From assembly GCA_903813345.2 (NCBI GenBank), contig CAIIXF020000007.1:20693564-20757563 (forward strand): a stretch of DNA of 64,000 nt, in the 5' to 3' direction. Both the position numbers and the translations under genes were made by a program. The stretch comes from Owenia fusiformis (Eukaryota > Annelida > Polychaeta > Sabellida > Oweniidae). The first letter of the stretch is position 1. Each line of letters starts with the position of its first letter. The notes under the pieces are model-generated. The model worked only from the letters and a program-made list of their open reading frames with translations. It did no database searches and was not told where the DNA came from. Below are positions 14,775-20,700 of this stretch, piece after piece.

Positions 14775-17700
14775 TTATTTATTTGTGAATTGAGAAGACA
14801 CCCATGCCAGGCCCCACTTCAGGTTAGTTAGCATGAACTTTAATGCCTTGGTCCATTGTTCCTCAGAGTTGAACTGGATCCTGGAACATAAAACAAAACT
14901 CATCAACTTTACCCTAGAGCTCAATAGGTTGAACACTCCAGTTTGAGTAGGACAGATCCTTTACAGTTTGATGTTTTAATCAATCAGAGCCATATCAATA
15001 CACTTGCATAATGTAGCAAAACATTTTTGAGAGATGCAAGGCTCATATTGGCAGGGTAATTTAAGTGGTTTTTCAGTAGGCCTATGTAATATGTGTGAAA
15101 AGAACATGAAAGACATCAGGTTGAGCAAAAAGTACAAAGTTGAACATACTTAATTGAATATGAGACACCTGTACTAGAATCCTCAACTTTTCCATTATGC
15201 ATCTTGTAAGGCAAACAGAATCCAGTGTCTCCTTTTTCCACCTCCTCCTTGAATTGCTGGAGGCAGTCTAAGAATGCAGCCATAGCCTGGTCAAATCTGC
15301 AATAATCAAGTGTTATAGCTTTACAAACTTAAGGATGTTTCAAATATGAATCATATTTCATATTTTGATTCAAATTAAGTCTTGAGAATATTACTACACA
15401 AATGTTTCAGAATTCATCTTCCTAACCACACTAACTCACATTGACTGAATAATTCATCATTTTCCTCCAAATGAAGTCTCCATTTAAAAAGGGGTATTGT
15501 GACGAAAAAAGGTATCTCAGATATCACTAAGCCATAAACGACTTACTTTGAATCCCAGAAAAAGCGAAATCCTCCAGAGCCATATAGAGGGAGCTCCTTA
15601 GACTTGTCACTCAGGGATTCCAGGAACGAATGGTTTCCATATGGCACCAGGCGATATCTAAAATATAAATCAAAATCATAAAAACGTGCACAATATTATT
15701 TTTCCCCAAAAATGAATCTTTAAATTCTAACACATCCATTTTTTCCAATAGGACTAGAAGTTAAAATAAGGTGATATCACACTTGTTTAAGTCATTGGTT
15801 CTTGACAACGCATCCTAAGTCAGTTCAGAGAGTCATGTGTCATCCTTTTAGTCATTTTGTATTTCAATGATAAGGCATACATGTATATTACTCATCATAT
15901 TTTATATTACTCATCATATTTTATATTACTCACCATATTTTATATTACTCATCATATTTTATATTACTCACCATATTTTATAAATGATGGATGATCATAA
16001 AGTTCTTTACATTGAAAATAATAGAGAGATTTTATGAGAAATAAATGATCACCCCTCAAAATCAGACCTCAAATTAGTAATAAGCGTGTTTAAAAACAAA
16101 CAAACATAGAGGATTTTCAATCATTACTCCCTCGTCTTTTCCCTAGAAGTTTTGAACTGACAGACCCCAATATATTACCCACATTCTCTACCCCTTCCTT
16201 CCCCACATGATTTATCCAAAAAATAATTGAATTGTGTTTTGGAAATACCTACAGAGTATACAATATCACAGCCAGAGAGATTTGGCAAATCAGAATAGAG
16301 CCCCCATGTAATGCTAAGTATTAGTTCCTAACCTTTGAAATGTCAGGTTCATCTTGTTGGCTAGTGAATGTAGCAGTAGCACTGTCTGCCCCCATGCAGC
16401 ATTAATCTCATTCCACTCAACCTGTAAACAAAGCAAACATGCATAAAGCTGTAAAGAAGATCTTTTTTCAACACATTTCTATGCTTTGATTAGTTTGATA
16501 TATCCTGCAACAGTATCAGGCCTTCTGTTACACTAGAAAGCTTGCTCACTCTGATGATATCCTTAGTACTTTAGTGGCTACCATGACATACTATAGTATA
16601 TGGAATGTTGCATTACTTACTCACACTGGGAAGCCTTCCTAGTCTGAGGTTGTTTATAGTACCGAAGTGGCACCCCCCCCCCCCCCTCTACAGCAAAAAG
16701 TACTAATGTTACATGGTGTGTCATATCTCATTTTGAAGACAATTGAATTCTGGAGTTACCTGAGAAATTTCAGCTTTATATCCTATAATCTTATAGAATT
16801 ACAACTGATTCTTAGTAGTTGGTATGACCACCAGTTGCTGCTCCAACAGCAGCTATTCTGGATGGATATGATTTCATTAAAGAATCAAATAAAGGTGTAG
16901 CGTTGCATAATCCTCTAAGCACTTTCTTCATATTCTTCAGAATTACATCCTTAGTGTTTCTATTTTCAAGAGGCTCTTTGTCCATCAATTCCTAGACTCA
17001 GTTTTTCAGAACTGAACTCAGTGCAGTTGAAATCTGGGCTAATTCTTTCATATTCCACTTTCTGGAGAAATGACATTTAACCAGTAACAGAGGCAAACAA
17101 AGTACTGAAGTAATATAATAAAATTTTAGATTTTAATATAAAGTTTTAATAAATAAAATTTGATGAGTAACTCCAAAATTAAATTGTCTTTCAAATGAGG
17201 TAATACACGATATGTAACATTAAGGAGTTTTTGCTGTAGAGGGAGGTGTCATTGTTTTTTGACACCCTGTATGTCATATATTGATTGTTGCATTACTTAC
17301 TGGTACACTAGGAAGCCTGCTTAGTCTGAAATTGTTTATCATACCAAAGTGGCCACTATGCCATATATGGAATGTTGCATATTACTTACTGGTACACTAG
17401 GAAGCCTGCCTAGTCTGAAGTTGTTTATAGCTCAAAAGTGGCCACTATGCCATATATGGAATGTTGCATTACTTACGTACTGGTACACTAGGAAGCCTGC
17501 CTAGTCTGAAGTTGTTTAGCTCAAAAGTGGCCACTATGCCATATATGGAATGTTGCATTACTTACGTACTGGTACACTAGGAAGCCTGCCTAGTCTGAAG
17601 TTGTTTAGCTCAAAAGTGGCCACTATGCCATATATGGAATGTTGCATTACGTACTGGTACACTAGGAAGCCTGCCTAGTCTGAGGTTGTTTAGTTCAAAA

Positions 17701-20700
17701 GTGGCCACTATGCCATATATGGAATGTTGCATTACGTACTGGTACACTAAGAAGCCTGCCTAGTCTGAAGTTGTTTAGCTCAAAAGTGGCCACTATGCCA
17801 TATATGGAATGTTGCATTACTTACGTACTGGTACACTAGGAAGCCTGCCTAGTCTGAAGTTGTTTAGCTCAAAAGTGGCCACTATGCCATATATGGAATG
17901 TTGCATTACGTACTGGTACACTAGGAAGCCTGCCTAGTCTGAAGTTGTTTAGCTCAAAAGTGGCCACTATGCCATATATGGAATGTTGCATTACTTACGT
18001 ACTGGTACACTAGGAAGCCTGCCTAGTCTGAAGTTGTTTATAGCTCAAAAGTGGCCACTATGCCATATATGGAATGTTGCATTACTTACGTACTGGTACA
18101 CTAGGAAGCCTGCCTAGTCTGAAGTTGTTTAGCTCAAAAGTGGCCACTATGCCATATATGGAATGTTGCATTACTTACTGGTACACTAGGAAGCCTGCCT
18201 AGTCTGAAGTTGTTTATCGTACCAAAGTGGCCACTATGCCATATATGGAATGTTGCATTACTTACTGGTACACTAGGAAGCCTGCCTAGTCTGAAGTTGT
18301 TTATAGTACCAAAGTGGCCACTATGCCATATATGGAATGTTGCATTACTTACTGGTACACTAGGAAGCCTGCCTAGTCTGAAGTTGTTTATCGTACCAAA
18401 GTGGCCACTATGCCATATATGGAATGTAGCGTTAAACACATTTGTCTTCTTTAACTTGTCAAGTTGAGCCTCAGCATAGCGCAGTTGGTTATCAACACTG
18501 GAAGTAAATTTCATGCATGAGAAATGCACATATGTTCACTTGCCTTTACAACAGATTTTCAAGACAACTGACCATTAATCACTGGTCAGAATCAAGTGAA
18601 GGTGATGGCGGTAACCTTCACATCTTAGATGGGGGACAGTAATTGTCACCTTCGCTTGATACTGACCAGTAATTAAAACAGAATATTCAGAATGAAATTA
18701 TTCTACACATAATTATCAACCAAAACTAAAATCAATCCCTACCTTTTTTGTGCATCTTCATACTCCAGTAACTGTCGTTTATATTCGTTGTATTCTTTAT
18801 AATATTTTTCTTCTTCTTTGTCTAATCTAAAATGTTCCATTAAATATATTGTATTGAAGATTTTTTAATTTCAGGTATAAAACTAGTCTTGTTTCAACCC
18901 TAGTGAGAAGTGACTGCTCATCACCTGCACAGCTCACCTCTGAAGGTAAGCAGATGGGGGTCTAGAGACTTGATGCAAGACTAAATATGTACAAAATAAA
19001 ACAAGATTATTTGGGACACCCGCCAGCCCGCCCAACCACCCGGCAAACTGATTGCAATATAGCACCTGAGGGTGCGATAAAAACACAAATGACAGGTGAT
19101 GCCTGGATGAGCAAACTACTGTATTAAAGGCCCCGTGTAAAGTTTGAACATATTGTTTAACCATCCAAATATAATTTTTCATGACTTTAAAAATTGTTTG
19201 AGACCTTTTTACCACTGTGTTAGGCCTTACCTTTGGGCTTCTTTCTTTTCTTTTTTTAGTTCCTCTTGTATATGTGAATTCTCCACTTCTATACTCTCAA
19301 GTTGTTGTCCTAGAGCTTTAGCCTCAGCCCTTAGCTAAAATTTATTACCAATATTTTGTACAATGTTCAATGATGCTTAAATTTACAAGAGAGGGGCACT
19401 TTGGAATTTATTCCCAATATTCTTTTTAAATAGTATAAGTCTGAAAAGTCTGCACCTTCACTTCAGCAAAACTGTAGCTATCATAAAAGAATGTGATCTC
19501 TGTGTTTTTTTAATTATGACCAATGGTCATTTATATGATCAAGGACTTGAAGCATCAGTTTTTGGTGGGAACAAGAAATACCCAGAATTCAACAATGTGT
19601 ATCCCATGATGCCTCACCTGGTCAAGGTCCTTGTCTAGAGCCTCCTCATCCACTTTCTCACCTCCAGTGCCAAGCTCTTCAAGAAAATCTCTGCAATTTA
19701 AAATTATGGTTAGTAAAAAGAAAATTTCAAATGATTTTTTTATTAAGCAGTTATTGAATGGTACTTGGGTCTGGATGTAAATAATTAAATGAGTTCACCT
19801 TACTTTAGAGGATATTTCAACATTTAAGAGTCCATTTCAAGTCACACAAACTTGGAGACTTGCATTAGGAGTAAGTAACTCATAAAAGTAATTTGTCATA
19901 CAAAACATCACCTGACCTGTAAGCTTTACATTCATCCTCTGTGACCTTCAGCTGTTGATCTAACTGGTCAAGGAGAGAGTCTGTACACTCCTGAAATGAA
20001 ATACAATACAGTGATCTCCCTAACATTAAAGCAAGTGGGCACAGCACCCACCTGAGATTTTGATAAAAGGCTTGCACCCACCTGAGAATCCATTTGCACC
20101 CAATTAAAAATGAGAAAAATAGGCATATTTTGACCAATTTTGGTCTGAATCTTGAGAGAAAATCCAAATAGAGGACTTGCCTAATATAGATATATAAATA
20201 GAAGCCAGAAGTAATTTTGGTCAGGCCAGAATGCCAATCATGACATGGGGGTAACTTATAGATCCCCTAAAATCCTATTATAAAACGACGACTATGACAA
20301 GATAACTAAGCTATACAGCAGACCAAAAAGAATTTTAATACAAAGATTACAATCATAAAATATGTCACCAGCTGTCGCAAAACACTGAACACCAACCGCT
20401 GAAGACCATCCACGGCCACAAAAAAGTTTGAGACTATAACATTATGAAACATGTATTTACACATTTCATACTATTGCATAAAATGAGCTGTCTAAAATAT
20501 CATACCTCACAAAGAGGATGGTCAACTTCAGAGTGGCCAGACATGATGTCAAACAAGTTACTGGTGACTTTCAACTGGTGGCTTAGGTTCTCCATGTTCC
20601 CTGCTTGTGAGTCACCCAGGAGTGTGAAGTCATTGTTACTGTCAGACTGCGACACAAGCCTCATTGGAGGGATGTACTTCTTGCTTGCTTGAGCATCACT

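What the first reader, a model, noticed from the sequence alone, without database searches (positions are those of the whole stretch)
17275..18497. Exon-derived minisatellite that copies BECN1 exon 8 together with its splice donor
Seen: the last ~80 bp of coding exon 8 (27 residues at the start of the conserved domain) plus GTAAGT are amplified into 13 tandem units running into the intron, with one more copy at 16575-16672. Ten of 13 units keep GTAAGT. The three units nearest the exon are 87 bp apart and open in frame, so use of the second or third donor would add 29 or 58 residues of duplicated beta-strand; the units at 17400-18104 carry a stop. Known: the segment is invariant in Beclin-1 across animals. 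Inference: a run of competing donors could tune splicing, produce longer isoforms or be homogenised by unequal exchange with the true exon.
Basis: partly seen in the sequence, partly recalled or inferred. Interest (0 to 1): 0.8.

Follow-up and report, generated by a model that had tools for sequence, protein, structure and literature searches.

The report
Minisatellite copying BECN1 exon 8 end
In an unnamed animal, the end of an exon of the autophagy gene Beclin-1, with its splice signal, is copied in a row of 15, and similar rows at other genes suggest that repeats there form without regard to exon edges, leaving many near-identical splice signals that the cell probably has to tell apart by position.

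Summary
Ten of 13 junctions hold GTAAGT, five of them shifted 4 nt. Donors 2 and 3 would add 29 or 58 in-frame residues; all later ones read into a TGA. BECN1 is intact and matched only here. Copies 2 and 3 equal the exon at 149 of 150 sites although the array predates the MITE, so they were re-copied. The locus is not unique: of 20 other AGGTAAGT arrays fetched from this genome, 7 start in a Pfam-recognised exon ending at the first donor (8 with one hand-corrected frame); exon starts are amplified too. In those arrays the donor word is kept no better than other words, and in 10 of 12 examined no extra donor is usable in frame. Best reading: minisatellites form without regard to exon edges, the first donor is used, the rest are neutral decoys. 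Use of the extra BECN1 donors stays possible. No RNA was available.

The parts
14775..21530 (-). BECN1 coding region, 12 exons, 446 aa, open
   Evidence: spliced in silico, one terminal stop, AG and GT at the 11 internal junctions
18353..18497 (-). BECN1 coding exon 8; about its last 82 bp match the repeat unit
   Evidence: Pfam APG6 E 1.7e-13
18347..18352 (-). donor 1 (CCA|GTAAGT), joins exon 9 to give ...LPSVP|VEWNEI...
18266..18352 (-). unit 2, open in frame, [29 protein letters not shown], ends at donor 2 (18265)
18179..18265 (-). unit 3, identical to the exon at 75 of 75 compared sites, open, ends at donor 3 (18178)
18094..18178 (-). unit 4, hybrid: A-type start, then B-type tract TTTTGAGC whose TGA is in frame
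17390..18093 (-). units 5-12, B-type (85/89/91 bp); a 259-bp stretch repeats at 256 of 259 identity
17301..17389 (-). unit 13, A-type, diverged
17270..17300 (-). unit 14, first half, cut by the MITE
16675..17269 (.). MITE (~595 bp, inverted ends ~104 bp in other copies, outer end ...GACACCCTG|TA near 17269; the other outer end lost); limits approximate
   Evidence: 40 near-full-length places, this one included, scored of 332 candidates; the others 85-88% identical; ends of 10 others compared
16627..16674 (-). unit 14, second half
16529..16626 (-). unit 15, most diverged (18 of 72 sites)
16333..16421 (-). BECN1 coding exon 9

Best explanation
It is a minisatellite founded by a tandem duplication that spanned the exon 8/intron 8 boundary of BECN1, probably through short similarity between the exon (GTgttTAAcGCtACATT) and the sequence starting at the donor (GTaagTAAtGCaACATT) (inference). 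It grew by unequal exchange, was split by a MITE, and its exon-side units have since been re-copied from, or exchanged with, the exon (shown by identity). It is one of a recurrent class: in this genome minisatellites arise largely without regard to exon edges, and one that spans an edge is tolerated because the outermost, original splice site still gives the right mRNA. In BECN1 the first donor (18352) is used by exon definition (145-nt exon, first donor downstream of the 3' splice site) and the other twelve junctions are neutral decoys; occasional use of donors 2 or 3 would give a +29 or +58 residue product, and use of any later donor a stop (inference from sequence; no RNA).
For: Array, unit order and donors. 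Intact gene, matched only at this locus. Age and re-copying: this MITE copy is 11.4% from 10 other copies that are 5.0% apart among themselves (own branch ~8.9%); units beyond the MITE differ from the exon at 10 of 67 and 18 of 72 sites, but U02+U03 at 1 of 150 (P 1.3e-5 at 8.9%). Recurrence: of 20 other AGGTAAGT arrays, 18 have an open frame of >=25 codons ending at the first donor and 7 match a Pfam family there with the automatic frame (Muted, NIF, GFO_IDH_MocA, Rubicon homology domain, FANCI_S2 below its cut-off, neurotransmitter-gated channel, MRPL52, and 57 for the three remaining frames), an 8th (UCH/USP) after correcting its first donor by hand. Of 17 downstream-flank frames two match, to NIF and FANCI_S2 again, as the next exon of the same gene would. 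Not donor-specific: 12 of 17 TTTTCAGG arrays open into a frame after the acceptor, and their 17 frames match SSF, Leu_zip, Kinesin, RING, TAF4 and septin among 12 families. Neutral donors: AGGTAAGT ranks at mean percentile 0.53 among 8-mers of the unit in 20 arrays (p=0.62). Blind formation: Pfam rate 7 of 20 arrays versus about 9 of 40 spread single AGGTAAGT sites, p=0.36. Folding does not favour donor 1 (unpaired 0.17 versus 0.27 and 0.29).
Against: No RNA: use of donor 1 is inferred. Against the sample of singles from the start of C1 (4 of 40) arrays do look enriched for exons (p=0.03), against both samples 13 of 80, p=0.11; 18 of 20 versus 49 of 80 have an open frame (p=0.016), so formation may not be wholly blind. 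The exon side makes up more of the unit than random placement predicts (20 arrays: median 0.75, KS p=0.001; 18 after dropping two: 0.73, p=0.006; 0.63, p=0.03 after allowing 6 bp of junction similarity). U02 and U03 are open and 87 bp, which selection would also produce. The 8.9% assumes that the MITE was close to its family when it inserted; the 10 copies were picked among the best matches. The acceptor arrays had no single-site control. The single-site Pfam count of 9 is my reading of 18 overlapping families.
Confidence: 0.72

Rival explanations
1. Functional donor array: donors 2 and 3 are used regularly and yield Beclin-1 isoforms with one or two extra copies of the start of the conserved domain; the last copy next to exon 9 could fold in place of the original, so the domain might survive.
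For: Units 2 and 3 are exactly 29 codons, open, with one synonymous difference in 150 sites, and end in the same donor 9-mer as donor 1; two other arrays (L035 and the FANCI-like L047) also have in-frame extra donors. Human IFI6 is said to use downstream repeat units as donors (passage in PMC4526556).
Against: Identity is explained by recent copying; the donor word is not preferentially kept, and in BECN1 AGTAAGTA is among the least kept words of the unit (5 copies, percentile 0.02); 5 of 10 GTAAGT copies are shifted and all later donors are stopped; in 10 of 12 arrays examined no extra donor comes before a stop.
Confidence: 0.13
2. Splice-site or U1 sink: the run of donors recruits U1 snRNP and slows splicing of intron 8 or protects the intron from early polyadenylation, setting Beclin-1 level.
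For: Ten GTAAGT within 1.1 kb of the exon; another array has 49 exact AGGTAAGT (L054).
Against: No better preservation of the donor than of other words in the arrays; arrays also form at exon starts.
Confidence: 0.08
3. Assembly artefact: collapsed or expanded repeat that is not in the animal.
For: No reads were available.
Against: Ordered unit types, graded divergence, an old MITE inside the array, one place only in an assembly whose contigs seen here reach 32 to 62 Mb.
Confidence: 0.04
4. Donor-directed amplification: something about a working 5' splice site (for example transcription- or splicing-linked breaks) makes exon ends preferential founders of tandem arrays.
For: Open frames 18 of 20 versus 49 of 80 (p=0.016) and exon-heavy units (KS p=0.006); arrays per AGGTAAGT about twice those per reversed word in the stretch C1 to C3:4.73 Mb (9 versus 8 arrays by my reading of the lists, 19,109 versus 33,902 words in the genome).
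Against: Exon starts with acceptors are amplified too; Pfam rate not different from spread single sites (p=0.36).
Confidence: 0.1

Closest known systems
IFI6 (6-16, G1P3) minisatellite with multiple splice donors, human (Turri et al. 1995; paper not held; known here from one introduction sentence and the reference in PMC4526556)
   Same: A minisatellite at an exon-intron boundary whose units offer donors.
   Different: There two downstream units are reported to be used, giving three mRNAs; the unit is short (12 bp, recalled). Here the unit is 87 bp, mostly conserved coding sequence, and use is untested.
Tandem-duplication intron gain (Rogers model; potato RdRp case, passages of PMC4974935)
   Same: Tandem duplication of an exon segment together with a splice signal.
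   Different: No new intron is needed: the whole array lies in one intron and exon 8 joins exon 9 directly to give the canonical protein. Acceptors inside the array are not excluded by my scan.
Ordinary minisatellite / VNTR
   Same: 85-91 bp units, homogenised centre, diverged far edge, block duplication.
   Different: One edge is anchored in a coding exon under selection; copy-number variation untested.
Tandem (mutually exclusive) exon duplication (recalled)
   Same: Coding sequence repeated in an intron.
   Different: Units copy only part of the exon, without its acceptor.

Membership tests
Minisatellite | head-to-tail units of about 10-100 bp | tested here: met
   15 units of 79-98 bp as cut
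Minisatellite | copy number varies between individuals | not testable with these tools
   one assembly, no reads, no second haplotype found
IFI6-type minisatellite with multiple splice donors | array spans an exon-intron boundary and units carry a donor | tested here: met
   exon 8 end is unit 1; 10 of 13 junctions with GTAAGT, 3 with GTACGT only
IFI6-type minisatellite with multiple splice donors | downstream donors are used in mRNA | not testable with these tools
   no RNA held
Tandem-duplication intron gain | duplication supplies both donor and acceptor of a new intron | tested here: inconclusive
   91 AGs in the array scored by pyrimidine content: best 0.61, inside the range of the gene's 11 true acceptors (0.50-0.72); the eight best shown lie on or beside the donors
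Tandem duplicated exons | each copy holds the whole exon with its own acceptor | tested here: not met
   the unit reaches about 82 nt up from the donor, the exon is 145 nt, so the copies lack its start and its acceptor

The most novel reading that the evidence does not exclude
This genome holds a natural collection of exons followed by several to dozens of copies of their own donor (4 to 49 exact AGGTAAGT in the 20 arrays fetched), each in near-identical context, in genes that look functional; most of those examined could make their protein only if the first donor is chosen. The choice then cannot rest on local sequence and must rest on position, for example the first donor after the 3' splice site or the first one transcribed. 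BECN1 exon 8 is one such exon, with two further donors open as an occasional +29/+58 residue outlet.
Probability: 0.5. Interest if true: 0.75.

Novelty: new variant of a known kind. Interest (0 to 1): 0.56.

Why it matters
How a cell picks one 5' splice site among equal ones has been studied mostly with duplicated sites in constructs (recalled). Here nature has made many such experiments, with the same donor word and tens of near-identical flanking bases repeated (5 to 49 exact donors in the Pfam-supported arrays) in genes that look like BLOC1S5, FANCI and MRPL52, and in BECN1. One long-read RNA set would show whether position alone decides. It also shows that a minisatellite over an exon edge need not disrupt the coding frame, and that the edge can keep being re-copied into the intron, a possible route to in-frame duplication of protein segments.

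Tried and rejected
Acceptors inside the BECN1 array, so that units would be cassette exons: 91 AGs scored by pyrimidine content; the best (0.61) fall inside the range of the gene's true acceptors (0.50-0.72), and the eight shown lie on or beside the donors, so this is unlikely but not excluded. RNA structure hiding the later donors: donors 2 and 3 are slightly more open than donor 1, later ones similar or less. Other copies of the array or of BECN1 in the assembly: none matched. Naming the animal: hemocyanin domain search empty and uninformative, since no control rang; a paper search for a 498-Mb assembly gave two unrelated crop papers. The MRPL52 family search in the whole assembly found nothing, although locus L054 matches it, so it says nothing about copy number. 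The first sample of single AGGTAAGT sites (L055-L094) came from the first 2.2 Mb of C1 only and may be gene-poor; I added a spread sample (L095-L134, C1 to C3) and report both. Per-member Pfam results are not printed for alignments: '9 of 40' for the spread sample is my reading of 18 overlapping families as at least nine proteins. L045 and L046 were dropped from the second exon-fraction test because their homology ran past one unit; for L052 I used the median spacing. The four-gamete test left out U14 and U15. Literature searches; searches returned no paper, the others listed nothing on this array or on a genome-wide class (I saw listings and abstract starts, and passages of three papers). PDB searches for L035, L050 and L038 and NCBIfam for L035, L044 and L050 gave nothing useful.
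Full report
What is there. The minus strand of 14775-21530 encodes an intact Beclin-1 of 446 residues in 12 coding exons. In the held assembly (498 Mb, 525 contigs) the APG6 family and the exon 8 protein match only this locus. Coding exon 8 is 145 nt (18497-18353) and ends CCA|GTAAGT; splicing from there to exon 9 gives LPSVP|VEWNEI. 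From the exon end into the intron runs a tandem array (TRF 17270-18434, 13.3 copies). One 87-bp unit searched against the whole assembly hits only this place, 16 times.

Units. Counting the exon end, there are 15 units. U02 and U03 are 87 bp and read [29 protein letters not shown], in frame with the exon. U04 to U12 carry a different tract with a TGA (TTTTGAGC, TTTTGAAC in U09); eight of these nine, U05 to U12, start with GTAC; U13 is again of the first type. A MITE of about 595 bp sits inside U14: 40 near-full-length places, this one included, were scored of 332 candidates, and its preserved end joins a TA, as in the ten other copies read. The flanks joined give a whole unit 14. Of 13 junctions with CCAGTA, five have GTAAGT at the exon-equivalent position, five have it 4 nt later after GTAC, three have only GTACGTAATG.

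Age and exchange. The MITE copy here differs by 11.4% on average from ten other copies, which differ by 5.0% among themselves; its own branch is then about 8.9%. The ten were chosen among the best matches, and a diverged subfamily would make the insertion look older than it is. The units beyond it differ from the exon at 10 of 67 (U14) and 18 of 72 (U15) sites, those next to the exon at 1 and 0 of 75. With 8.9% neutral change, at most one difference in 150 sites has probability 1.3e-5. U02 and U03 were therefore copied from, or exchanged with, the exon after the MITE came in. A stretch of 259 bp (three units) is repeated at 256 of 259 identity; five pairs of alignment columns fail the four-gamete test, but four of them share one GTAC insertion, so this is two independent conflicts at most. 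Divergence rises with distance from the exon (Spearman 0.54, p=0.047).

What splicing could do. Donors 1, 2 and 3 have the same 9-mer and the same score (3.08) on a recalled weight table; about 82 nt upstream of donor 1 match the sequence upstream of donor 2 with few differences. Donor 2 would add 29 residues, donor 3 58; each of the 15 later candidate donors meets the same TGA after 120 codons of the extended exon. Twenty-eight of the 29 residues equal human Beclin-1 269-297 (alignment, my count). Because the repeat is complete, the copy next to exon 9 might fold in place of the first; this is inference. Local structure does not favour donor 1.

The locus is not alone. I searched the whole assembly for three AGGTAAGT words spaced 70-100 and 40-70 bases: 527 and 654 matches, against 312 and 376 for the reversed word, although the reversed word itself is commoner (33,902 against 19,109). 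These are overlapping matches, inflated by long arrays; in the stretch that both lists cover I read 9 against 8 separate arrays. From the 100 rows listed in each I took every array with at least two rows, 20 in all, with about 2.5 kb on each side. In 18 of 20 an open frame of at least 25 codons ends exactly at the first donor. Frames from 7 of 20 match Pfam there: Muted, NIF, GFO_IDH_MocA, Rubicon homology domain, FANCI solenoid 2 (below its curated cut-off), neurotransmitter-gated channel, MRPL52. An eighth, a ubiquitin hydrolase, appeared when I moved to the true first donor by hand. Others look like exons by eye only (L035 reads like a tetraspanin end; recalled, and Pfam, NCBIfam and PDB searches did not match it). 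Of 17 frames taken downstream of the arrays, two match Pfam, and the families are NIF and FANCI_S2 again, as expected for the next exon of the same gene (the call does not print which member).

Controls. Single AGGTAAGT sites: for 40 from the start of C1, 4 families matched, one a reverse transcriptase; for 40 spread over C1-C3, 18 overlapping families matched, which I read as at least nine proteins. Seven of 20 against 9 of 40 is no difference (p=0.36); against 4 of 40 p=0.03; against both, 13 of 80, p=0.11; open frames 18 of 20 against 49 of 80, p=0.016. So arrays sit on exon ends about as often as the word itself does, with a possible excess. Exon starts are amplified as well: of 17 TTTTCAGG arrays with at least two listed rows, 12 open into a frame, and the 17 frames match sodium symporter, leucine zipper, kinesin, RING, TAF4 and septin families among 12 (which locus carries which family is my reading, except L135). 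For these I have no single-site control and no count of the single word.

Are the extra donors kept? Across the 20 arrays the word AGGTAAGT ranks at mean percentile 0.53 among the 8-mers of the unit (Wilcoxon p=0.62), although the search itself favoured arrays that keep it. In BECN1 the word AGTAAGTA is among the least kept (5 copies, percentile 0.02), largely because of the GTAC insertion. In 12 arrays with an exon frame chosen (eight with a family match, L035, L038, L050 and L053 by frame only), 10 have no extra donor before the first stop; L035 has 16 of 16 and L047 7 of 35. So most of these genes could make their protein only from the first donor. This supports decoys and a positional rule, and it makes the open BECN1 units look like a coincidence of period and recent copying rather than a purpose.

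What does not fit. The exon side makes up a median 0.75 of the unit in 20 arrays (KS p=0.001), 0.73 in 18 after two were dropped (p=0.006), 0.63 (p=0.03) after allowing 6 bp of junction similarity; random placement predicts 0.5. Not all of these arrays are shown to be exonic. I have no good account of this; it is the best hint of a donor-linked mechanism.

Known relatives. The nearest precedent is the human IFI6 minisatellite, whose repeat units serve as donors; I saw only a sentence and the reference in PMC4526556 and a reference in PMC2572611, the original not being held. Intron gain by tandem duplication (passages of PMC4974935) creates a new intron, which is not needed here. Nine paper searches on the subject listed nothing on this array or on a genome-wide class of such arrays; the library holds open-licence papers only.

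Verdict. Observation confirmed with corrections; interpretation partly supported. Most likely a neutral exon-edge minisatellite, one of a recurrent class in this genome, with position-based choice of the first donor.

Noticed in passing
window 9478-9661 (+): 90-bp direct duplication, two copies at 90%, in frame in an open stretch that continues into a sequence reading like a carbohydrate sulfotransferase (recalled): an in-frame 30-residue coding duplication.
   Followed up: no
window 16675-17269: MITE with inverted ends; one outer end lost next to a run of C; 40 near-full-length places scored out of 332 candidates.
   Followed up: partly
window about 18566-18676: Inverted-repeat stretch in BECN1 intron 7 just upstream of exon 8, seen by eye only.
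   Followed up: no
L035-L054 (G000 C1-C5): Twenty further arrays of AGGTAAGT-bearing units, up to 49 donors (L054), 7 or 8 of them shown to begin in a coding exon.
   Followed up: partly
L135-L151 (G000 C1-C3): Arrays of acceptor-bearing units, several running into coding exons, with kinesin, sodium symporter, RING and septin matches among their frames.
   Followed up: partly
L049 and G000 C2:1839989-1841044: Units that, by eye, hold a near-complete tiny intron (donor, pyrimidine stretch, AG) around a few bases, repeated in tandem.
   Followed up: no
donor arrays: The repeat unit is mostly exon side (median 0.73 to 0.75) and ends shortly after the donor; unexplained.
   Followed up: partly
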